DNA of 38,703 bases from an uncultured Prevotella sp. (GTDB lineage Bacteria; Bacteroidota; Bacteroidia; Bacteroidales; Bacteroidaceae). Positions 21,083-33,425 of the stretch are shown here, one piece after another (the first letter of the stretch is position 1; every line of letters starts with the position of its first letter). The translations under genes were made by a program, and so were the position numbers. The stretch covers positions 1 to 38,703 of the forward strand of contig CAMAGM010000009.1 of NCBI GenBank assembly GCA_945833995.1. Reading direction: 5' to 3'. The notes beneath the pieces were generated by a model. That model ran no database searches. It saw only the letters and a list, made by a program, of their open reading frames with translations, and had not been told where the DNA came from.

Positions 21083-21120
21083 AACGCGGTTCTAATTTGA
21101 TTATAATAGGCATCTGTTCT

Positions 21121-21204
21121 ATGTTCCGCAATGGTGAACCTACATTCCGCAGTGGGGAACGTACATTCCGCAATGGTGAACGTACGTTCCGCAATGCGGA
21201 ACAT
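21121..21204. repeat. Four 21-bp tandem units (ACGTTCCGCAATGGTGAACGT type) bounded by perfect 14-bp inverted ends
   Basis: 84 bp = 4 x 21; TTCTATGTTCCGCA (21117-21130) / TGCGGAACATAGAA (21195-21208). Confidence 0.9.
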
Positions 21205-21494
21205 AGAATAGATACCCTTTCCTAATAATTTCCATACGCCTATCCTCACATTCATATCACTCCTATCCAAACACTATCGTAACCGCTATCCACTCACCAT
21301 TATGGCACGCTTGGTGGCAACATCATTTCCGTTGCATTTTCTCCTTCTATACAGTGAATTTTCATTTTTATCTGCCACCTGCCACCAAAACGGTGCAACG
21401 TAACGATATACAATACATTAACATGGTGGCAGATAGAGGCTGTTTTTGCCTAAAAACGCCCAATTTCCGAAACGACACCACTGCTTTTAGCTTT

Positions 21495-21648
21495 CAACGT
21501 TACGTTTCCTGTACTCCAACGTTGCGTTTCCAACACTCCAACGTTGCGTTTCCAACACTCCAACGTTGCGTTTCCAGCACTCCAACGTTGCGTTTCCGAC
21601 ACTCCAACGTTGCGTTTCCAGCACTCCAACGTTGCGTTTCCATCGACT
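21495..21648. repeat. Seven 22-bp tandem units CAACGTTGCGTTTCCARCACTC
   Basis: CAACG starts at 21495, 21517, 21539, 21561, 21583, 21605, 21627. Confidence 0.92.
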
Positions 21649-22096: not shown

Positions 22097-23527
22097 CTAT
22101 TTCACCCAAAAATTCGGCATTGATGTCTTAAACTCAATATCAATATAATGACATTGCTCCTTGATGATTCCACGTCGCCTAATTGCGGGTTGAAGACAAT
22201 AGTTGTCAAAATCGTCCTTCTCCACTTCGGCGAGATTTGTCCAATGTGGAAAGAGTAATTTCATATATGCGACTGCTATACGTTTTACGGCATTGAAATC
22301 ACGAGTGTCCGCATTCTTGTCACATCCTACCAATTCATCAAAAAGCAAGCCATAGATATTTTGCGTTCTTAACGAATGTAGTATTTCGGAGAAATATTCA
22401 ACATTAATTGTCCAACCTTTATATATTATGCCTTTGTTTATACGAGGGAGGTGCCAACCCTCTATAAAACAATGGAAACGGTCAAGAAGAGCAGATTCAC
22501 GGAACGACTGTGGAAGGGAGTCGAAATATCTGAAATTAAGCGGGCATCGCTGGTCATTCAAGGGGATATTGCCCATTATCATAAGCCCACATTCAGAAGT
22601 GAACTCATTGTTGTCTATTGTCGTTTTCCCTGATTCCAGATACGATTTTAATGCCGCTTGAATCTCTGCTGGCTCTTGGAATATAATAGTTTGTATTTCA
22701 TCAAAAGCAGTAAAATCATGGTTCTTAATAATGCCATTCTGTTGTTTTGCCTTGTCATAAAAAAGTTTTGCCCGTGTTACCTTACCTCCACTAACGAGCC
22801 AACCATATTTTGACAGATTTCCAAACACAAAAGATTTACCTGTCCCTTTGGGAGCAAGTTCTATAACATTCAGTCGTGGCTCTACAAATATAAGCAATCG
22901 AGTCAGGAACTCCATTTTCTGAGTCATAGTTTCAAAACCATCACTCTCATACTCCATTGCAGACAACAACACATCAACCCATTCCTGCACAGTAAAGGCT
23001 TTCCTTGCATTTCTAAAATAGTCGATATCGACAGAACGGTATGGTTTGAAAGGCTTGTAATCTACCATCTCAACATGGTTCTTCTTTCCATCCTCGTCAG
23101 GAAGAACAGACAGTTTAACGATATCCCATTTTTCACCATCCACCAATTCGCCCTGATGCTTCTTATAGACATATTCTGGTATCTGACCTTCATTCAGCTT
23201 TATCCCGAGGTCTGGGATAGCAAACCTACGAAGACCCTTAACCAAGTCAATGTATATTATAAATCTTGTCAGTAATGTTAGCTCATCTCCACCAGCAAGA
23301 CGGTCTTTCACTTCTGTCTGCTTCTGCGGAATCACCATATCCAAGAAAGACGTAAGTCCCATTCTGTCTACAGAACCATCGTTGATAATATATCGTTTCA
23401 ACACGAAATCCTTGACAAACGATGGAAGGTTACGCCCTGCAAACAAACTGTTGGTTGATACGGGGTCTTTATAAATTGCCATTGAAGAGAACAGTTCTCT
23501 TACTTTATTTGTAGTACTTGTCTGCAT
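22097..23527 (-). CDS. brxL: BREX BrxL-like AAA+ protein (short form)
   Basis: 476 aa; VIELAPKGTGKSFVFGNLSKYGWLVSGGKVTRAKLFYD, FTAFDEIQTIIF, LMIMGNIPL, SALLDRFHCFIEGWHLPRI typical of BrxL. Confidence 0.85.
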   Translation of the reverse strand: MQTSTTNKVRELFSSMAIYKDPVSTNSLFAGRNLPSFVKDFVLKRYIINDGSVDRMGLTSFLDMVIPQKQTEVKDRLAGGDELTLLTRFIIYIDLVKGLRRFAIPDLGIKLNEGQIPEYVYKKHQGELVDGEKWDIVKLSVLPDEDGKKNHVEMVDYKPFKPYRSVDIDYFRNARKAFTVQEWVDVLLSAMEYESDGFETMTQKMEFLTRLLIFVEPRLNVIELAPKGTGKSFVFGNLSKYGWLVSGGKVTRAKLFYDKAKQQNGIIKNHDFTAFDEIQTIIFQEPAEIQAALKSYLESGKTTIDNNEFTSECGLMIMGNIPLNDQRCPLNFRYFDSLPQSFRESALLDRFHCFIEGWHLPRINKGIIYKGWTINVEYFSEILHSLRTQNIYGLLFDELVGCDKNADTRDFNAVKRIAVAYMKLLFPHWTNLAEVEKDDFDNYCLQPAIRRRGIIKEQCHYIDIEFKTSMPNFWVK

Positions 23528-23529
23528 AT

Positions 23530-25938
23530 TTAGAAACCGAATAAGTCATCCTCCTGCACACCAATATTGATGTTCAGAGAGTCTGTTTGTTTATAATCAC
23601 CTATTTTCAACACTATTTTTGAAGCAGTTGCCACGAGGTTAAGTCGCTCACTCTCAAACGTGTCTCCTTTTGTGCGACGCAAAGAATAAGTAACACCATT
23701 GTACACAACTGCAGGAATATCAATACTGCTTACTCCCTTTATTATGTATTTTACTATTGGATTATTCGCCGAGATATCATGCTCCAACAGCTTTGCAGAT
23801 ACGTCTGATGCGTTCTTCTGGCTGGAAACTATAACGACGGGGACAAGAACCTCTTCTGGCGTTGCCCCTCCATGGGCTCCCTGACCATTTGGTGTTTTTG
23901 ATGTTAGCGAGTTATGTGTAAGCGAGCATAAAGTTTTTCCATCTTCCAAGATAATATAATTATCATCTTTTACCACTTTGTTGTCGGTAAAATTCGCACA
24001 CCGTCCACCATGGTCAGCTTCTATTCCAGCTATATTCAGCCCTTTTCCCAAACATGCCAAATAGCTTAAGCCATGATCAGCCACAAAGGCTATTTTCTTT
24101 CCATTATATTGTGCAAGTACTTGAAGAATCGCTTTCTCCACTATTTGCATCTCTTCAATAAAATAGAGCGGATATTCCTTTTGGCTATGGGCATAATGGT
24201 CGAGGTCGCCTATCTTACTTATGCCAGGTGCCAGTTCCTCCAACTTAATTTTGTTTACCATCGTGGTAGTAGGGAGTTCTGCTGTACAGATATGTATCTC
24301 ATTTAGGTATACCCCATCGAGCCTATGCCTTTCTATTGCTTTAGAGATAAAAGGAATCCAATCAACGCCAAGACCATCAATCCAATAATAAACGTCAATG
24401 TCACTTCTGCTATTCATTAATGTCTTAACCGTCTTAAACCTACTCCTCCACGAGTCAAATGTCACCTCATTAGCATTCCTTTCCTTCAAGCATTCTACCA
24501 ATCGTGGAGAAATTGAACATGCGAGTTTGGACTTTTTGTATTCTTCAAAATATTCATTTACCCACATGTTGCCCTCTGACATCTGCAAACTAAAGATAGA
24601 GGTATAGCTATACAACAAAGGGAACAAGTCTTTTACCATTTCCCTTTGTATAGCATCTTTCCCCAGCCATTCCACCATTAGGCATTTTTCAGAAATGGTC
24701 AAAGAGGACATGTATTTCATAGCTTGGAAATAACCACGCTCTGGGTCTGCGGCAATAGCCATCAGCTTGGCCTTGACTTTCCTTTCTGCCCACTCGGTGA
24801 TTTGGACGTTATGTTTAGCGGCTTCCTTCAAAAGCATGCAACGCACTCGTAAATCTTTCTCGCTAATTGCCTCATCAAATGCCAATGTTGCCAATAGCGA
24901 GAATAGCTCCGACGTGCCAAGTGACGAGGATTTGCGTAATGCTTTTGAAAGATATGTTTCTTCGTCAATATGTTGTAGGTAATAGATTTTCAGTAGCCAG
25001 CGTGAGAAATCGTCTTCACATTCAAACCACGTTTCAACAAAGGAAACCGCATCTGTAAGATTGTAAGAATTGAATTTGCGGTTAACGAATTGCTCTAAAT
25101 CAAAGTCTTCAATATCTATAAGATGGGCGAGTTTTCCCCAATAATCCATATTGTCTTTAGGATTATCATCTGTCCCAACGCTTACTCCAAGCCCATTCCT
25201 CAAAAAATCATACGCATTTCTACAAACAACATATTCAAAGGCATTGTCTGGTTGCGCGTTATGCGCATTATTGAACAAAGACTTTGACGTACAGATTATC
25301 TGTTGACATACTTTATTGCCAACTTTCCATAAATCAATCCATTGCCTAACGTTGGAACAAATGGTGTATTTGCCCGACAATCCTTTTACTCCGTATGTAC
25401 TCTCTGCCAATATAAGCTTATAGTTGTCACCAGTTGTAGCAGAATGGTATTCCCATATATGTATGTTGGGGTCATCCTTGAACTTGCTGACCTTACCTTG
25501 CATTCCAATAACTGGCACATATATACGTTGATGCCCACGCTGCGCCTCTTCTGGAGATTGAATAAGACGTATGGTCTGCAACAAAGAGTCAAACTCCGCA
25601 TAGTTCCCATTATCATAAAACCGTGCTATTTCGGAGAATGGGGCTATGACAAAATCATTAGCGGGGAGACTCTTCACATACTCTTCAAAACGCATGGCGA
25701 GTTGTGAATATGTAATTAATTGGTCATCGTATTCGTCTGCCATCCACTTGTCTATTCCTTGCACATAGACATTGTGGTTACTACATTCAAGGACGAACTC
25801 ATTGAAGTCGCTGAACTTCTCAAAGAGGACAAACCTTAGTGGATACCGGTTACGCAATGCGCTTTCGGCTCCCACCCAGTTTTTGTCTTCCTCAATCTCC
25901 TTATAGAGTTCGTCAAGCGTTTCAAAAGCCTTATACAT
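23530..25938 (-). CDS. pglZ: BREX PglZ alkaline-phosphatase-superfamily protein
   Basis: 802 aa; VYYWIDGLGVDWIPFI, KIAFVADHGLSYLACLGKGLNIAGIEADHGGRC, GAHGGATPEEVLVPVV typical of PglZ C-terminal domain. Confidence 0.88.
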   Translation of the reverse strand: MYKAFETLDELYKEIEEDKNWVGAESALRNRYPLRFVLFEKFSDFNEFVLECSNHNVYVQGIDKWMADEYDDQLITYSQLAMRFEEYVKSLPANDFVIAPFSEIARFYDNGNYAEFDSLLQTIRLIQSPEEAQRGHQRIYVPVIGMQGKVSKFKDDPNIHIWEYHSATTGDNYKLILAESTYGVKGLSGKYTICSNVRQWIDLWKVGNKVCQQIICTSKSLFNNAHNAQPDNAFEYVVCRNAYDFLRNGLGVSVGTDDNPKDNMDYWGKLAHLIDIEDFDLEQFVNRKFNSYNLTDAVSFVETWFECEDDFSRWLLKIYYLQHIDEETYLSKALRKSSSLGTSELFSLLATLAFDEAISEKDLRVRCMLLKEAAKHNVQITEWAERKVKAKLMAIAADPERGYFQAMKYMSSLTISEKCLMVEWLGKDAIQREMVKDLFPLLYSYTSIFSLQMSEGNMWVNEYFEEYKKSKLACSISPRLVECLKERNANEVTFDSWRSRFKTVKTLMNSRSDIDVYYWIDGLGVDWIPFISKAIERHRLDGVYLNEIHICTAELPTTTMVNKIKLEELAPGISKIGDLDHYAHSQKEYPLYFIEEMQIVEKAILQVLAQYNGKKIAFVADHGLSYLACLGKGLNIAGIEADHGGRCANFTDNKVVKDDNYIILEDGKTLCSLTHNSLTSKTPNGQGAHGGATPEEVLVPVVIVSSQKNASDVSAKLLEHDISANNPIVKYIIKGVSSIDIPAVVYNGVTYSLRRTKGDTFESERLNLVATASKIVLKIGDYKQTDSLNINIGVQEDDLFGF

Positions 25939-25941
25939 ATA

Positions 25942-28900
25942 CTACGAATTTATTCTGTCCAACAACCATTCGCCGCCTTCGTCGCATAATTTATTCAAGA
26001 GAGCCAACGCAACATTCAGGGAAGATATGCTCGCAATGTGCTCCTTCGCTTTTTTCCGCTTCTCGGCTATTACGCTATAGTTTGGCATTTGCTCGCCAAC
26101 TCGTGTAGGAGTGTCGTTACGTTCTTCAACTTTTGTCCATTCCTTGTTTGAAGTTTGCTCCAAACGCCAGTTCTTGGCTCTTGCAACCACTTCCTCCTCC
26201 GTCCAGTAACCTACAGTTGATTGCAGATTCTGCTCAATATACTTTCTAACTTCATCCAGCTCGTCATCCTTAAGATTTATCAGCTCTATCTGTTTCAGGA
26301 AATTGTCAAATCCCTCAGCAAAAATATTCTCAATATTAAGAATATTCTTCATCTCAATACGCATCTCGTCAATCAAAGCCAGTGTCTCGTTAACCAACGC
26401 AGGATTGCGCAGCTCCCTTTCCATACAAATCTGCACTATATCATCAACAAGTTTTTTCACTTCGTCTGTGATGGAAACGCTAAAAGGAAGATTGGAAAAT
26501 GCTTTCTCAGAGGCATATTTGATAGCCCATAGAGGACGATTCTTCTTTCCAAGGAATTCCGCAGTAATGGCATAACGGGCATCCTTCAGACTTGTCACGT
26601 CATTATAGGTGTTGTCCTTACTGTTGAGTTTGAACAATGATATTAGAGCTTTGCACAGTTTGCCCTCTTCAGGTGTTTGGAACTTGAAGTTGAGTTTGCT
26701 GTTCGACTTGTTGTCGTCCCAAACCTTAAAGAGCCATACAATATCGTCAATCAAAGCATTCTTGTCATGTGGTTTTCCTTGCATGTCGAATATTTTGTTC
26801 TCCCAACCTCGTAAGGCGAATGCTACCATAGCCATTGCGGAAAAACCTCCGTAAAGACCGTATGGCGGTTTTGTAAGCATAGAAAACTTGTCGTCGAAAT
26901 TGAATGGCAAACTCTTGTCGGCATATTTGATGATGCTATTCACCTTGTCATATACCTTTTTGAAAGGATGGTTTTCAGACACGTCGGTTTTCCATTGCAT
27001 ATTGTCGTCCAAACAGTCTTGAACAAGATATTGTATCGGGCGCATCTGCGCCGTGATTTCCGCCAACTCTGCTTTTGATGTCGCAAACAAGAAGGTACGC
27101 ACAATCTCCTTCGAGTTCTGTTGTTTCCAGAAAGTAGAAGGTGCTTTTTGTCGCAGTATCTCACAAGCATCTGGTCCGTATGGATAGATTGTTGGAGCAA
27201 CAGCAGAGTTCACTATGCTCGAAAGATGTTTCACCGATATAGGTTGTTTCTCATTGCCGCTAATATATATTATGGCATTGTTGCGTTGGGCTGCCTCCAT
27301 CCAGTCTTTTACCATTCCTATTGCATGGTCTCTATGGACTTTCTGTTGGTCAATAAATCCATGACTACTTGCACACGCATAATTTGCCTGATATTCTATG
27401 AACTGTTCGTATCTGCCATCGGTCATTACCTCGTCGAAAACAATATATACTATGTTTTGCAAATCCTTGTCTTGTTCGTCATTTGCACAACTTTCTGCAA
27501 AAGTTCGCAATGTGGCAAGCTCAATGTTGTTGCGTGCCATTAGTAGGGCAAAGAACAAGGCACTACCCTTCGTTTCTCTGCGTCCATTCTTAATCTGGCT
27601 GCGCAAAGAAGAATCATTTTGAACGTCTGAATAGAATTTGTAGTTATACGGACGAATTACCTTCTGCATATATTTCTTTTCAAACAAATTCGATGCAGCA
27701 TCAGAGAAGTTGAGTATCTGGTGGGTAAAACGGAACTGTACGTTTCTCATCTCCGTTTTCTTTTCCTCAATCTCACCAGAAGGCAAGGCTGAGAACTGAA
27801 CGGAATAAAGACCTCCTGGGGCACGCTGTATTATTCCTTGCTCATTAAACCATTGAAGCACAGTGTCAACCATTCCTTCATAGCGTGAGCCTTGGTAAAG
27901 TGCCTTTATGTTGTCCTCTGAAGGTGTAACGAGTCCGTTGTTATTCTCTCCAGACACATTATTGAATGCGTTGAGCAATAATATCCCTTTGAAAACGGCA
28001 TAATAAGCATCACCCTCATTGGCAACCTGAAGGCGGTAGGAGTTGAAACGCTCGGTCACTGCGCCATAATTTGTCACATCGTCTTGGAACACCTTTAGAA
28101 CGTAATCCCATAAATAGTCGGCAGTTATTGTATCGCCGTTCAAATATGCCTCTTCATTATCCAAGAAATCTCTTATGGCATCATTCTGCCCCAAGAACTC
28201 GAATACACTACGGCTTGATGAGCCAACAACAGTCGCATAGTGAGTTGCAAGATTAGCTGTTCCGGGATGCAATGGGTAAAGATTGAAAAGGTCTGCCTTA
28301 GTTGATTCCGGGTCATTGCTTGTCTGCGTGAAGACAGTGAGCAGTTCCGGATTTTGTTGATAAAATCTTAGGCACATCTGTTCGTGTCGCTCCTTATTCA
28401 AAATCTCAAACTTGCGCGACATAATCTTGAAAGCCGATACCGACTCCATATTGTATTTTTCCCGATGGTAACGGCCATCGGTTTGTTTCAATTGCTCAGA
28501 GTTGAATTTGTCAAAGGCTGACGGATGTGAAATAAGGAACATGAAAGAGTTGTTCTCTTCGTTGGCAAAACGCTCCGCAATCTCTTGCAGCTCTTTTAGG
28601 ACTGGAATGCCTATGGCATTGGTCATCACATCGGTGAACTCATCCCAAACAATCAGCAGACCATTATAAGTCCCCATTTCCGCAAGTTTATCTTGCACTT
28701 CTATGAGCCATTGTTTGATGTTTTCGTTGTTCATGCGCACGTCAAGACCTGTCTCACGCAGTGTGTCAGATATTCTATGGAACGTACCGAGGTCGTTGTT
28801 CCTTAAATTGTCAATCAGTTGGGAGCTGTTCGATACAATTGAGGAAAGTGCAGTATAGGTTTCGACCAAATGTTCCCATATTTCTTTGTGGTTTTCAATA

Positions 28901-29391
28901 TGATTGATATAACTCTCAAAGTCCGTTGGCACTGATACTTCTATCTTCTTTGCCTTGAGAGTTGCCATCACAGCTTTTTGCAACACAAGGGCAAGGTCGA
29001 GAGGATGTGTCATGGCTGCAAGGCCATAAACTTTCACGGTGAGCAGACGCTTCTCCTCACGCAAGTTATATATGGCATTTCTAATTGTGGCAAATTTTTC
29101 ATCACCATATTCATAATCCACCCATTCCCTTATACTATTAATATCGTCACCAAGTAAATGGCTCAATACGGCAACAGCATGGCTCTTTCCTGTGCCGTAA
29201 GTTCCGTTTAGCCAAAACGACTTATGGCTATCAAGATCATTGCCTCTCACTGCCTTCAGCACAGTGCGAAGCACCTTGTTAAACTGTTCATTAGGGATGA
29301 ACGATGTCCACTCCCCCTGTTTTTCGTCTTCTATGTTGTAGGCAGCCTTGCCACCACGCAACTTTATTATGTCGTCATATTTTGTAGCCAT
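25942..29391 (-). CDS. brxC: BREX P-loop protein BrxC (type 4 form)
   Basis: 1149 aa; Walker A SFWLNGTYGTGKSHAVAVLSHLL; Walker B-like GLLIVWDEFTDVM; large BrxC-like architecture. Confidence 0.85.
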   Translation of the reverse strand: MATKYDDIIKLRGGKAAYNIEDEKQGEWTSFIPNEQFNKVLRTVLKAVRGNDLDSHKSFWLNGTYGTGKSHAVAVLSHLLGDDINSIREWVDYEYGDEKFATIRNAIYNLREEKRLLTVKVYGLAAMTHPLDLALVLQKAVMATLKAKKIEVSVPTDFESYINHIENHKEIWEHLVETYTALSSIVSNSSQLIDNLRNNDLGTFHRISDTLRETGLDVRMNNENIKQWLIEVQDKLAEMGTYNGLLIVWDEFTDVMTNAIGIPVLKELQEIAERFANEENNSFMFLISHPSAFDKFNSEQLKQTDGRYHREKYNMESVSAFKIMSRKFEILNKERHEQMCLRFYQQNPELLTVFTQTSNDPESTKADLFNLYPLHPGTANLATHYATVVGSSSRSVFEFLGQNDAIRDFLDNEEAYLNGDTITADYLWDYVLKVFQDDVTNYGAVTERFNSYRLQVANEGDAYYAVFKGILLLNAFNNVSGENNNGLVTPSEDNIKALYQGSRYEGMVDTVLQWFNEQGIIQRAPGGLYSVQFSALPSGEIEEKKTEMRNVQFRFTHQILNFSDAASNLFEKKYMQKVIRPYNYKFYSDVQNDSSLRSQIKNGRRETKGSALFFALLMARNNIELATLRTFAESCANDEQDKDLQNIVYIVFDEVMTDGRYEQFIEYQANYACASSHGFIDQQKVHRDHAIGMVKDWMEAAQRNNAIIYISGNEKQPISVKHLSSIVNSAVAPTIYPYGPDACEILRQKAPSTFWKQQNSKEIVRTFLFATSKAELAEITAQMRPIQYLVQDCLDDNMQWKTDVSENHPFKKVYDKVNSIIKYADKSLPFNFDDKFSMLTKPPYGLYGGFSAMAMVAFALRGWENKIFDMQGKPHDKNALIDDIVWLFKVWDDNKSNSKLNFKFQTPEEGKLCKALISLFKLNSKDNTYNDVTSLKDARYAITAEFLGKKNRPLWAIKYASEKAFSNLPFSVSITDEVKKLVDDIVQICMERELRNPALVNETLALIDEMRIEMKNILNIENIFAEGFDNFLKQIELINLKDDELDEVRKYIEQNLQSTVGYWTEEEVVARAKNWRLEQTSNKEWTKVEERNDTPTRVGEQMPNYSVIAEKRKKAKEHIASISSLNVALALLNKLCDEGGEWLLDRINS

Positions 29392-29409
29392 ATCTGTATG
29401 ATAATCTAA

Positions 29410-29859
29410 TTATTCTTGTTTCGTTAAATATCTCTCAATGATGCAACGCTTTAGGTATTCCCTATTTTCTGCTTCTTGTAAAAGGTCCCACAATTCATCG
29501 TCCAACTTTGCGTATAATAGATTCTCGCGGAGGTATTTGGCGGAGGGTGTATGCCCTTTTATTGGAGGTCTGCATTCCTTAATCCAACAAAGGTGATAGA
29601 ATTCCGAAGAACAAAGATGATAGTATGGAACTATAAATGGCACATGACCAATCTCATCGTAATATCTGTGTAATCCATCATAGCTATATATCAAATGTTC
29701 ATCATTCCACATTATTACATTTTGCTTCAATCTCATTAACGATATGTTTTCAACGATTGAAAGCAGAAAAAGCGGTTTGGCATTTGACTTTCCATTCACG
29801 CCGTTCCCTCTTCTTATTGCAAGTAACATTTCTTTGTATAACTGAATTGAAAAGTTCAT
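29410..29859 (-). CDS. Small BREX-embedded protein resembling the N-terminal (sulfur-binding-domain-like) region of HNH restriction endonucleases; no HNH motif
   Basis: 149 aa; pattern KPLFLLSIVE...PFIVPYYHLCSSEFYHL...LRENLLYAKLDDELWDLLQEAENREYLKRCIIERYL; 1-nt gap after brxP, 18-nt gap before brxC. Confidence 0.55.
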   Translation of the reverse strand: MNFSIQLYKEMLLAIRRGNGVNGKSNAKPLFLLSIVENISLMRLKQNVIMWNDEHLIYSYDGLHRYYDEIGHVPFIVPYYHLCSSEFYHLCWIKECRPPIKGHTPSAKYLRENLLYAKLDDELWDLLQEAENREYLKRCIIERYLTKQE

Positions 29860-29860
29860 C

Positions 29861-32371
29861 CTATAATAAAGATTTAAGAGCGGAAATTGGAGACAAATCC
29901 TCTCGCAATGTTATATGCTCAAGTCCCATCGATAATTCTGCGATTAAAACCCGATTGCTATCAGAAGATAAGTATCGTAATACTCTCAAAAGGTCATTTC
30001 TTGCTATGCCAAATTCTTTATATACTCCATTTACTTCTTCTTCTCTATATAAATCAGAGACCCTAAGCATAGATATTTCTTTTGTCTTGCCATATTTATA
30101 TAAAGAGTATGCAACCGCTTCTGGTGACAAATCGCTATATGGCAAACGCATCAATGAGAGTCCTTTTTGATCTTGACTTTCGAATTGTTTTAGTTCCTCG
30201 CCAATAGGAGAGTATTTGAACGTTTGTACCAATGCTTGAACTGCATATTTTATTGTTGTCTCCTTGAATGTTGGAAGAAAATACTCCGTTGCCAACCTAT
30301 CCATACTCTTTCTGTCAAACAAGATTGCAAACCCAAATGTCAATACAAACCACCTCATTAATGGGCTGTTATATGTGAGATTAATATGAATAAGTTCCCA
30401 AAGCAGTGTAGGGGAATCCCTGTTGATTTCAACGCACAACTCTCCAAAATCTGTAATATGTCCGTTCTCGTCAATTATTTCAGCATCTTTTAACCATGCC
30501 TTAAAACTTGGCACTTGTTTTACTCCAAGATAATTGTCTTTCCAAAATGACTCTGGGTCAGACAAATATTGATCCACCCATTCTTGATGAATACCAAATG
30601 TTCCGTATTTTGAAATCTTCATATTTGATGTATTTATTACTGTAGGTTTTAACAATGAATCTGCTACAATGCACCCGACATCATGATACTCCAAGCACTT
30701 ATGGCAATGAATGCATCTTGTTGTCTCTATTGATACATCAGGATAAACAGAAAGTGCTCCTGTCGGACATTCCAGCTCGCAAGACTCACAATTTATGCAA
30801 TATGCTGATTTGTATATTACTCTTCTTATCAAGTATCTTAATTGAATATTGTTGTTGTCGTACAAAATAAAACGATAATCGTTTATTTTTGATTGATAAT
30901 CAATTGAAAAGTTGAAAACTTCATCTTTGTACGACAATTCTCCCAGTACTTGGTTTCCTTTATATTTTACACTATATTTCCCTAAAGCGGAAAGCCATGT
31001 CAGCACATCCTTTTGGGAATAACTTACTTTAGCCTCCCATTTCGTAGAAGATGTTGATATTACAATGGAAGTTAGCGAATCTGAGAATTTTCCACTTCCC
31101 CTCATTTTCCATTTACGTTCGGATATATATTCCTCTTTATTGGGAATATTTCTTTCTTCAACCATATTCTCCAAACGAGAAAGAAATGGTTTGAGATTAC
31201 TATGATAGCAATTGTTCACTATCATATCATCCCATGGTGAACCAAATGGACAAAGAATACAACCAACTCTTGGTTTTCCTACCCTGTATGCACTATTAAT
31301 TGGCAGGTCGTGTCCAAAAAGATATAAAAATACTTCGGTAGTGTTCCATAAAAGAATAGGTCGCGCATTAACAACGAATCTGTGCTTTACGCCTTTGCCA
31401 ATTCGGTTGTAATCGCTTCGTTTGACTGACTCTTCAGCTCGAACACCTTCAAAGGCAATGAAATGACGTTGCTTTTGGCCTTTTGACAACAAAGCCCTAT
31501 ATAATGGCGCTGTCTTCATAACAGAACAACACCAACGATGTGTGTCACTGGGTGTACCAATTTTGTCCCAATAGTTTAACACCGACTCATGGTTACGGGC
31601 GGTATGGAATTTTAAGGCAGGAAATAAATCCTTGTAATATTTCTGTATCTCTTCATACAACGAGAGCGACGGAGGCAACTCATATCCTGTGTCGCTATAA
31701 ATAACCTCGAAATCAGTTGGAGGAATAGCACGAGTACACAAGTCGAGAACAACTTGCGAATCCTTTCCACCAGAGAAAGATGCAATGAAGCGGTCAATCT
31801 TTGTTGATAACAACACACGCTTACCTTCTTTTTGAGCAGCTTCTAAGGGCATGATGTCAAACGACTCACAATCCTGTTTAACAACTGCCATCTTTTGTTT
31901 ACTCTTTTTCTCTACTCGCTCTGCCATTGCCTCAAAATCCATTTTGTTGGCATCAGCTTTATCAAAAGTCTTGTTTACTTTAGAGTAGGCTGTGTAAGTG
32001 TCTCTAATAAACTCGATAGCTTCATTCTCCAAAACGAACATATAGTCAGATGTTTTTCGCAACATTGCATCAACATCCACAGGTATGAGCTTTTGCGGTT
32101 CTATACCTTTGCAAAACTCAAGAGTTGGCTTAGTGTAGATATTTGCTCCTTTCGCGTCAAAAATATGTTCACCTCTATACCAATATTGCTTGTTGATAGC
32201 CCACATGATGGGGGCATCACAATGAGGATAATCCCAACCGAGCTTGTTTAACCCTAATAAGTCAAGTTCTTCATAGAACACAGGACGAGGGGAGATACCC
32301 AATGTACCCTCCACTATGCGGGAATGTAATAACACGCCCCCAGTCTCCTTGTCCCATGTTATTTTATACAC
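29861..32371 (-). CDS. brxP: BREX type 4 BrxP: PAPS-reductase/DndC-like ATP-pyrophosphatase with 4Fe-4S ferredoxin-like motifs and C-terminal DUF4007-like region (ORF can extend to 32539)
   Basis: FIASFSGGKDSQVVLDLCTRAI PP-loop; HRWCCSVMKTAPLYRALL; CINCESCELECPTGAL and CIHCHKCLEYHDVGC; start set at in-frame GTG 32371 (MYKITWDKETGGVLLHS). Confidence 0.85.
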   Translation of the reverse strand: MYKITWDKETGGVLLHSRIVEGTLGISPRPVFYEELDLLGLNKLGWDYPHCDAPIMWAINKQYWYRGEHIFDAKGANIYTKPTLEFCKGIEPQKLIPVDVDAMLRKTSDYMFVLENEAIEFIRDTYTAYSKVNKTFDKADANKMDFEAMAERVEKKSKQKMAVVKQDCESFDIMPLEAAQKEGKRVLLSTKIDRFIASFSGGKDSQVVLDLCTRAIPPTDFEVIYSDTGYELPPSLSLYEEIQKYYKDLFPALKFHTARNHESVLNYWDKIGTPSDTHRWCCSVMKTAPLYRALLSKGQKQRHFIAFEGVRAEESVKRSDYNRIGKGVKHRFVVNARPILLWNTTEVFLYLFGHDLPINSAYRVGKPRVGCILCPFGSPWDDMIVNNCYHSNLKPFLSRLENMVEERNIPNKEEYISERKWKMRGSGKFSDSLTSIVISTSSTKWEAKVSYSQKDVLTWLSALGKYSVKYKGNQVLGELSYKDEVFNFSIDYQSKINDYRFILYDNNNIQLRYLIRRVIYKSAYCINCESCELECPTGALSVYPDVSIETTRCIHCHKCLEYHDVGCIVADSLLKPTVINTSNMKISKYGTFGIHQEWVDQYLSDPESFWKDNYLGVKQVPSFKAWLKDAEIIDENGHITDFGELCVEINRDSPTLLWELIHINLTYNSPLMRWFVLTFGFAILFDRKSMDRLATEYFLPTFKETTIKYAVQALVQTFKYSPIGEELKQFESQDQKGLSLMRLPYSDLSPEAVAYSLYKYGKTKEISMLRVSDLYREEEVNGVYKEFGIARNDLLRVLRYLSSDSNRVLIAELSMGLEHITLREDLSPISALKSLL

Positions 32372-32443
32372 GATTCTTTCATATCTATATTCCGACAGAA
32401 TTCCCAAGAATCGGAAGGTTCTTAGTTGTTGTTCAAGCCAATA

Positions 32444-32484
32444 CAAAAAGAAAGCGTGGGAATCTTTCCTGCTGCCCATCCCAC
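32444..32484 (-). terminator. Terminator/attenuator-like hairpin with T-run in the brxP leader
   Basis: Minus strand GTGGGA-(17 nt)-TCCCAC then GCTTTCTTTTT, about 70-75 nt before the proposed brxP GTG. Confidence 0.55.
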
Positions 32485-32780
32485 AACTCGAGGCTTCTCG
32501 CATTGCCCAACAGTCGAGACGGACAACGCAGAAGCCCACGCATGAGGTATATAATAATCCATAGCGTGTTATTGCCTACATACATCAATGATATACATAC
32601 GACAAAACACGGCTGGAGATAATATACCAACCGTGGACATTCACCGTTGTCTTGTCCTTTGACTGTTAATTGTAACTTTGCGAGAATTACGAGTTGTCAA
32701 AGACAAGCGTCAGATAAACGCCCTTTTCATAAAGACTGCACCCGCCACTCTGCCCCTTGCGAAGCTTCTGCAACGGAATG
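32444..32780 (-). ncRNA. Candidate structured leader RNA or independent small RNA upstream of the BREX operon
   Basis: Promoter at 32787-32818; hairpins 32608-32635 (9 bp) and 32493-32535 (about 15 bp with one bulge); terminator-like end at 32444-32484. Confidence 0.45.
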
Positions 32781-32786
32781 CAACTG

Positions 32787-32818
32787 CAAATATACGGCTT
32801 TTATTTTTTCCAACCAAA
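32787..32818 (-). promoter_or_regulatory. Bacteroidales-type promoter TTTG-N20-TATATTTG for the BREX operon/leader
   Basis: Minus-strand TATATTTG (32787-32794), TTTG (32815-32818), spacer 20 bp. Confidence 0.65.
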
Positions 32819-32988: not shown

Positions 32989-33045
32989 AGTGGAGTTCAT
33001 AAAAGAACCTGTTGAGTTCACAAAATAGTTCGTAAAAGGCCGTCC

Positions 33046-33279
33046 AAGTTCGCAAAAGAGTTCGTAAAAGCAAGTCGTCAAATATACAAGTTGATTTCTC
33101 AAAATCCTCATATCAGCGCTATACAAATGAGCGAGAGCATGGATCTTTCACCCCGCCAGGTTCAGAAATACCTGAAACGTCTTCAAGAATTAGGAAAGAT
33201 AGCTCGTATAGGTGGGCGAAAAATGGGGAAATGGAAGATTATCGATCAAGAATACGAGGGATTCTTTGATAGAATATAA
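33046..33279 (+). pseudogene. C-terminal fragment of an AlbA_2/Schlafen-type ATP-binding protein: KFAKEFVK linker plus winged HTH
   Basis: In-frame KFAKEFVKASRQIYKLISQNPHISAIQMSESMDLSPRQVQKYLKRLQELGKIARIGGRKMGKWKII; no upstream body of the gene. Confidence 0.5.
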
Positions 33280-33425
33280 AGGACGAGGCTTTAGCGATCT
33301 GTACGAACTTATATGCGCAAGTTTTATTTTGCTTTTGACCCTAATACAGCTCCTCGTTATATGAAGTATATCCCGGGGAGGTCGTGAATTTAATTTGCCG
33401 GTAATTTGCTATCACCCAAATAAGA

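What the first reader, a model, noticed from the sequence alone, without database searches (positions are those of the whole stretch)
22097..32818. Complete type 4-like BREX operon with a sulfur-chemistry enzyme and no DNA methyltransferase
Seen: five same-strand genes separated by 1-18 nt, encoding PAPS-reductase-like BrxP, a 149-aa protein, BrxC, PglZ and BrxL. Established: BREX type 4 is defined by brxP, brxC, pglZ and brxL and lacks PglX; PAPS-reductase-like enzymes of the DndC/SspD type act in DNA phosphorothioation. Inference: self/non-self marking here may be phosphorothioate rather than methyl. The island also looks more AT-rich than its flanks, consistent with acquisition.
Basis: partly seen in the sequence, partly recalled or inferred. 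Interest (0 to 1): 0.78.

Follow-up and report, generated by a model that had tools for sequence, protein, structure and literature searches.

The report
BREX-4 operon carrying a sulfur-mark reader
This is an ordinary type 4 BREX anti-phage operon of a kind already reported to put sulfur into the DNA backbone, but its unnamed 149-residue gene is a nuclease-free version of the domain that recognises that sulfur mark, and it is swapped between operons together with the DNA-recognition half of the enzyme that writes the mark.

Summary
The operon is real and complete: brxP, a 149-aa gene, brxC, pglZ and brxL, same strand, 1-18 nt apart, intact motifs, in an AT-rich island. The phosphorothioate (PT) inference is sound but not new: brxPCZL is already listed as a PT-synthesis system (PMC11931770, PMC12839542).

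What is new is the 149-aa gene. By sequence (profile against PDB 8h0l, E 2e-23) and by predicted fold (AlphaFold2 pLDDT 89.8; the 14 best PDB matches are all sulfur-binding-domain entries) it is a stand-alone DNA sulfur-binding domain (SBD). That is the PT reader of type IV nucleases such as ScoMcrA, here without its HNH nuclease. It lies between brxP and brxC in 23 of 27 related Bacteroidales operons, matches no Pfam, PADLOC or NCBIfam model, and the 2026 BREX survey does not mention it. All 26 BREX copies have Ala where nuclease SBDs have His/Tyr/Asn at a sulfur-pocket position.

Closely related operons are near-identical except for one block: BrxP from about residue 300 to its end (including an SspB-like domain) plus the SBD's first ~104 residues. 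I read this as an exchangeable writer-plus-reader specificity cassette. SBD fold, conservation and block exchange are shown; PT binding and effector control are inferred. Caveat: the primary BREX-4 PT paper was not held.

The parts
29861..32371 (-). brxP: PP-loop PAPS-reductase-like domain (SspD/DndC type), alpha+beta region, ferredoxin-like Fe-S clusters, C-terminal SspB-like DUF4007 domain
   Evidence: PADLOC BrxP 900 bits; PAPS_reduct, Fer4 and weak DUF4007; C-terminal 267 aa fold like SspB 6juf/6lb9, E about 1e-6; start placed at GTG 32371 by homology
29410..29859 (-). sbd: stand-alone DNA sulfur-binding domain, 149 aa, no nuclease domain
   Evidence: phmmer to PDB 8h0l E 6e-5, profile E 2e-23, AF2 pLDDT 89.8, Foldseek top 14 all SBD entries
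25942..29391 (-). brxC: P-loop ATPase of type 4 BREX, SspC-like
   Evidence: PADLOC BrxC 1014 bits, SspC 66 bits; Walker A GTYGTGKS
23530..25938 (-). pglZ: type 4 alkaline-phosphatase-fold protein, probable metal-dependent nuclease
   Evidence: BREX_PglZ_4 754 bits; invariant DGLG, DHG, HGG motifs
22097..23527 (-). brxL: AAA+ ATPase, short form
   Evidence: TIGR02688 421 bits over cut-off; Walker A APKGTGKS
29548..31471 (-). hypervariable block (BrxP residues about 301-836 plus SBD residues 1-104) that is replaced as a unit between related operons; window limits projected from relatives
   Evidence: identity profiles, breakpoints, partial Mantel and AU tests

Best explanation
A type 4 BREX operon whose modification side is an SspBCD-equivalent PT writer: BrxP = SspD + SspB, BrxC = SspC, with sulfur supplied in trans by the chromosomal SufS. 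It marks specific sites in self DNA. The 149-aa protein is a stand-alone sulfur-binding domain that reads that mark. With no nuclease of its own, it most likely reports PT status to the PglZ/BrxL effector side, licensing it on unmarked phage DNA or restraining it on self DNA. Shown here: gene content, SBD fold, SspB-like fold, conservation, block exchange. From literature: brxPCZL systems make PT. Inferred: that this SBD binds PT, and that it controls PglZ/BrxL.
For: Operon identity. Writer parts: BrxP-SspD/DndC and BrxC-SspC similarity, SspB-like C-terminus, SufS over cut-off in the host genome and no desulfurase in the operon. SBD identity; tblastn to plasmids gives 10 of 10 hits in 'HNH endonuclease' genes, and the family profile finds SBD-HNH fusions and mostly ~320-430-aa ORFs across the phylum. 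Conservation: 23 of 27 related operons. Co-exchange: partial Mantel of SBD N-part with BrxP C-part given BrxL r 0.64, p 1e-4, against 0.25-0.28 for SBD C-part, BrxC, PglZ and BrxP N-part; sharp DNA breakpoints; AU p 1e-6 and 9e-4 against the backbone clade. The host genome holds no other SBD, so no self-cutting SBD-HNH enzyme was seen.
Against: No binding or phage assay. All 26 BREX SBDs have Ala at the position where nuclease SBDs have His, Tyr or Asn; the matching Y31A change in SBDSpr nearly abolished binding (PMC7470945), so PT affinity may be weak or gone. Two lineages (L002/L003, L009/L020) and the more distant operons examined (L089-L091, L100) lack it, with no SBD elsewhere in the genomes of the first four, so it is not essential to type 4 BREX. 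Its co-variation with BrxP could be mere linkage, because the genes adjoin, and L016 against L006/L007/L027 changed the BrxP part while largely keeping its SBD.
Confidence: 0.6

Rival explanations
1. The SBD-derived protein has lost PT dependence and serves as an extra target-recognition subunit of the writer, binding the unmodified site next to the SspB-like domain.
For: Invariant Ala replaces the pocket His/Tyr/Asn in all 26 BREX copies. It is exchanged with the writer's recognition half and sits next to brxP, and the variable part ends just after the region expected to hold the base-contact loop.
Against: The other pocket-side residues, Lys28 and Pro78, are invariant. Operons without it keep brxP-brxC-pglZ-brxL and still swap the BrxP block (L009 against L020), so the writer does not need it for specificity.
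Confidence: 0.22
2. The SBD is a shield: it covers self PT sites against SBD-HNH type IV enzymes or other PT-dependent nucleases brought in by mobile elements, and takes no part in BREX interference.
For: SBD-HNH enzymes occur in other Bacteroidales and on plasmids, and the protein lacks a nuclease domain.
Against: Its place inside the core operon and its exchange with the writer block do not need this role, and the pocket change predicts weaker, not stronger, competition for PT sites.
Confidence: 0.1
3. The hypervariable block is ordinary divergence plus linkage; the SBD hitch-hikes and is an unselected accessory gene.
For: The SBD adjoins the variable BrxP half; it was lost at least twice by parsimony; and L016 breaks the association.
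Against: Flanks at 0.9 identity fall to 0.35-0.58 within one block with sharp edges at DNA level and recover inside the sbd gene; the reading frame is kept in all 23 related copies.
Confidence: 0.08

Closest known systems
BREX type 4 (brxPCZL)
   Same: Same four core genes, same order, BrxP fused to DUF4007, no PglX; reported to make PT (PMC11931770, PMC12839542).
   Different: Adds a stand-alone SBD between brxP and brxC that the held literature does not list as a component; no desulfurase gene in the operon.
SspABCD-SspE PT-sensing defence
   Same: The writer parts correspond (SspB, SspC, SspD); the SspE effector also reads PT on self DNA to set its activity (PMC9646914).
   Different: No SspE, SspF, SspG or SspH in the operon; the putative reader is a separate SBD and the effector side is PglZ/BrxL.
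SBD-HNH / SBD-SRA-HNH type IV restriction enzymes (ScoMcrA, SprMcrA, EcoWI)
   Same: Homologous SBD fold and sequence; Lys and Pro of the HK/YP signatures kept.
   Different: No nuclease domain; Ala in place of the pocket His/Tyr/Asn; lies inside a PT-writing operon, whereas dnd clusters are found near SBD-HNH genes in under 3.6% of cases (PMC7461809).

Membership tests
BREX type 4 | brxP, brxC, pglZ and brxL in one operon, no PglX methyltransferase | tested here: met
   no MTase in the operon or the scanned window ORFs
BREX type 4 | type 4 form of PglZ | tested here: met
   BREX_PglZ_4 754 bits, cut-off 140
BREX type 4 | DNA phosphorothioate made by the operon | not testable with these tools
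   needs LC-MS or PT-seq; reported for brxPCZL systems
BREX type 4 | phage exclusion | not testable with these tools
   needs a plaque assay
DNA sulfur-binding domain (SBD) | SBD fold | tested here: met
   Foldseek 8h0l TM 0.75-0.79; 5zmo and 7cc9 also match; best non-SBD match E 0.04
DNA sulfur-binding domain (SBD) | significant sequence homology to a proven PT-DNA binder | tested here: met
   8h0l profile E 2e-23 over nearly the whole length
DNA sulfur-binding domain (SBD) | sulfur-pocket residues (HR/HK and YP signatures) | tested here: inconclusive
   Lys and Pro invariant, His/Tyr/Asn replaced by Ala in 26 of 26, Tyr of YP variable; sequence alignment only
DNA sulfur-binding domain (SBD) | preferential binding of Rp phosphorothioate DNA | not testable with these tools
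   needs a binding assay
Ssp PT system | SspB-, SspC- and SspD-like parts | tested here: met
   SspB fold; SspC and SspD profile matches to parts of BrxC and BrxP
Ssp PT system | SspE or SspFGH effector in the operon | tested here: not met
   the other genes are pglZ and brxL
SBD-HNH type IV restriction enzyme | HNH nuclease fused to the SBD | tested here: not met
   149 aa, SBD only; no Pfam match

The most novel reading that the evidence does not exclude
Probability: 0.4. Interest if true: 0.78.

Novelty: new variant of a known kind. Interest (0 to 1): 0.56.

Why it matters
How BREX tells marked from unmarked DNA is unsettled: type I PglZ is a nuclease that degraded methylated and unmethylated plasmids equally (PMC12205998). 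A candidate reader encoded inside a BREX operon makes that question directly testable with one small protein.

Tried and rejected
Sulfate-assimilation reading of BrxP: rejected; CysH-type models match only the shared domain and far below cut-off. The 149-aa protein as BrxA, BrxB or a regulator: rejected; no such profile and the fold is SBD. The single-protein scan of genome contigs with the 149-aa gene found nothing; the BrxP scan supplied the relatives. PADLOC BrxP as a presence test across genomes rings on general PAPS reductases in 367 of 395 genomes and in 12 of 14 controls, so only near-full-length matches were counted. Searching relatives with two flank proteins, in the hope of finding the empty site, was uninformative: the flanks are not well conserved in the 39 other same-genus genomes. 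A viral-contig search gave one further BREX copy. The primary paper on type 4 BREX PT (bioRxiv 2024.06.03.597175 / PMC12914056) is not held, so it could name this gene without my knowing. The AU tests used a group taken from the backbone tree after the identity table had been seen, with the quick method; treat those p-values as supportive.

Full report
WHAT IS THERE. The five genes are real. On the minus strand the order of transcription is brxP (29861-32371), a 149-aa gene (29410-29859), brxC (25942-29391), pglZ (23530-25938), brxL (22097-23527), with gaps of 1, 18, 3 and 2 nt. PADLOC profiles name the four large proteins at 651-1014 bits, and NCBIfam places PglZ in type 4 (754 bits against a cut-off of 140) and BrxL over its cut-off. 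Catalytic motifs are intact and conserved in relatives. The island is AT-rich against its flanks. No methyltransferase was found in the operon or among the larger window ORFs scanned.

THE PT INFERENCE IS SOUND BUT NOT NEW. BrxP resembles SspD and DndC, and BrxC has SspC similarity. The C-terminal 267 residues of BrxP were modelled at pLDDT 90.6, and their only strong matches in the PDB are the SspB crystal structures 6juf and 6lb9 (E about 1e-6; next match 0.01). The operon therefore holds the three SspBCD parts, two of them fused. The sulfur donor is not in the operon; the host genome has a SufS over its NCBIfam cut-off. A 2025 paper lists brxPCZL as the third PT-synthesis family (PMC11931770), and a 2026 survey treats type 4 BREX as PT-based and notes the SspB, SspC and SspD homologies (PMC12839542). 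I could not read the primary report they cite.

THE OVERLOOKED GENE. The 149-aa protein matches nothing in Pfam, PADLOC or NCBIfam, nor does its family meaningfully match Pfam or PADLOC (five weak, scattered Pfam hits, none in PADLOC). A plain sequence search of the PDB gives 8h0l, the sulfur-binding domain of Hga solved with PT-DNA, at E 6e-5. A profile of 23 relatives raises this to 2e-23 over nearly the whole length. Its predicted structure (pLDDT 89.8, pTM 0.86) has as its 14 best PDB matches only SBD entries, from Hga, ScoMcrA and SprMcrA; the first other match is at E 0.04. Among plasmids all ten tblastn hits lie in genes annotated HNH endonuclease. In Bacteroidota the family profile otherwise finds mostly ORFs of about 320-430 aa; the two of these scanned with Pfam carry HNH_2.

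CONSERVATION. Of 27 related operons with a readable brxP-brxC junction, 23 have the SBD there and four do not: L002, L003, L009, L020. The genomes of those four have no SBD elsewhere. More distant type 4 operons (L089, L090, L091 and an archaeal plasmid, L100) also lack it at that place. On a tree of BrxC, PglZ and BrxL the simplest account is one gain in a Bacteroidales lineage and two losses; the set was gathered by similarity to this BrxP, so the frequency applies to that lineage only.

A SWAPPED CASSETTE. Operons with BrxL at least 90% identical are about 90% identical nearly everywhere except in one block, BrxP from about residue 300 to its end plus the first part of the SBD, where identity falls to about 0.55-0.8 on average and to 0.31-0.58 in swapped pairs (L017 against L005, L017 against L014). 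At DNA level the edges are sharp: about 900-1050 nt into brxP and, on the right, inside the sbd gene. The SBD's first 104 residues follow the BrxP C-half after correction for BrxL (partial Mantel r 0.64, p 1e-4), while the SBD's end, BrxC, PglZ and the BrxP N-half follow it weakly (r 0.25-0.28). Cassette and SBD data each reject the backbone clade (AU p 1e-6 and 9e-4). Exceptions: L016 against L006/L007/L027 changed BrxP but largely kept its SBD, and L009 and L020, without SBD, still differ in the block. Adjacency alone could link the two genes, so the co-exchange supports, but does not prove, functional matching.

THE POCKET. In SprMcrA the sulfur sits among Y31, Q32, Y78, P79 and A82, and changing either Tyr to Ala nearly abolishes binding (PMC7470945). 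Aligned on the HK and YP signatures described for nuclease SBDs (PMC7461809), all 26 BREX SBDs keep the Lys and the Pro but have Ala where the nuclease SBDs have His, Asn or Tyr; only two orphan SBDs outside BREX (L082, L083) share the Ala. This is the strongest reason for caution. It may mean weak reading, as with SspE, whose PT preference is only about twofold (8.5 against 18.4 uM, PMC9646914), or loss of PT dependence.

HOW IT PROBABLY WORKS. Writer: SufS sulfur, then BrxP with BrxC, at a site chosen by the SspB-like domain (inferred from homology). Reader: the SBD on PT sites (inferred). Effector: PglZ, a metal-dependent nuclease in type I BREX that degraded methylated and unmethylated plasmids equally (PMC12205998), and BrxL; the SBD could give them self/non-self information (inferred, untested). 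SBD-HNH enzymes rarely lie near dnd writers, as expected if they would cut self DNA (PMC7461809); an SBD with no nuclease beside a writer fits a self-mark reader, and the search found no other SBD in the host genome.

VERDICT. As handed over, the finding is a correct sighting of a known system with an already published inference. The SBD component and the shared writer-reader cassette appear undescribed in the held literature and make it a new variant of a known kind.

Noticed in passing
window 21105-21216 and 21495-21648: Intergenic repeats downstream of brxL: a palindromic 21-nt tandem unit (TTCCGCAATGGTGAACGTACA) with more than ten copies elsewhere in the genome and a strong predicted hairpin (z -7.4), and a 22-nt tandem unit (CAACGTTGCGTTTCCAACACTC) repeated about six times.
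   Followed up: partly
window about 33010-33280, + strand: Remnant of a gene upstream of brxP on the opposite strand: a winged-helix-like tail (...SAIQMSESMDLSPRQVQKYLKRLQELGKIARIGG...) in an otherwise stop-ridden frame, probably a decayed regulator or ATP-binding protein.
   Followed up: no
L084:8162-10472: A DndC-like PAPS-reductase gene overlaps the start of an SBD-HNH gene: a sulfur-transfer enzyme beside what should be a sulfur-dependent nuclease, an unexpected pairing.
   Followed up: partly
L095:5030-8972: An SBD fused to a helicase of the ResIII/SNF2 type, next to a protein that looks like a DNA cytosine methylase.
   Followed up: no
L082:2740-3186 and L083:9487-9933: Orphan 148-aa SBDs of the same Ala-Lys type as the BREX copies, with no BREX genes recognised in the stretch read, near an Mrr-type nuclease (L082) or restriction-like genes (L083).
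   Followed up: partly
L100:19213-20328: In the Methanosphaera plasmid pNP174 a type 4 BREX operon without SBD is followed by a DUF262 gene, the domain type I recall from SspE; a possible alternative PT-sensing partner.
   Followed up: no
L003:6202-6262: The brxC frame changes about 24 codons from its start at a run of A, so this copy may be broken or the assembly may be wrong there.
   Followed up: no
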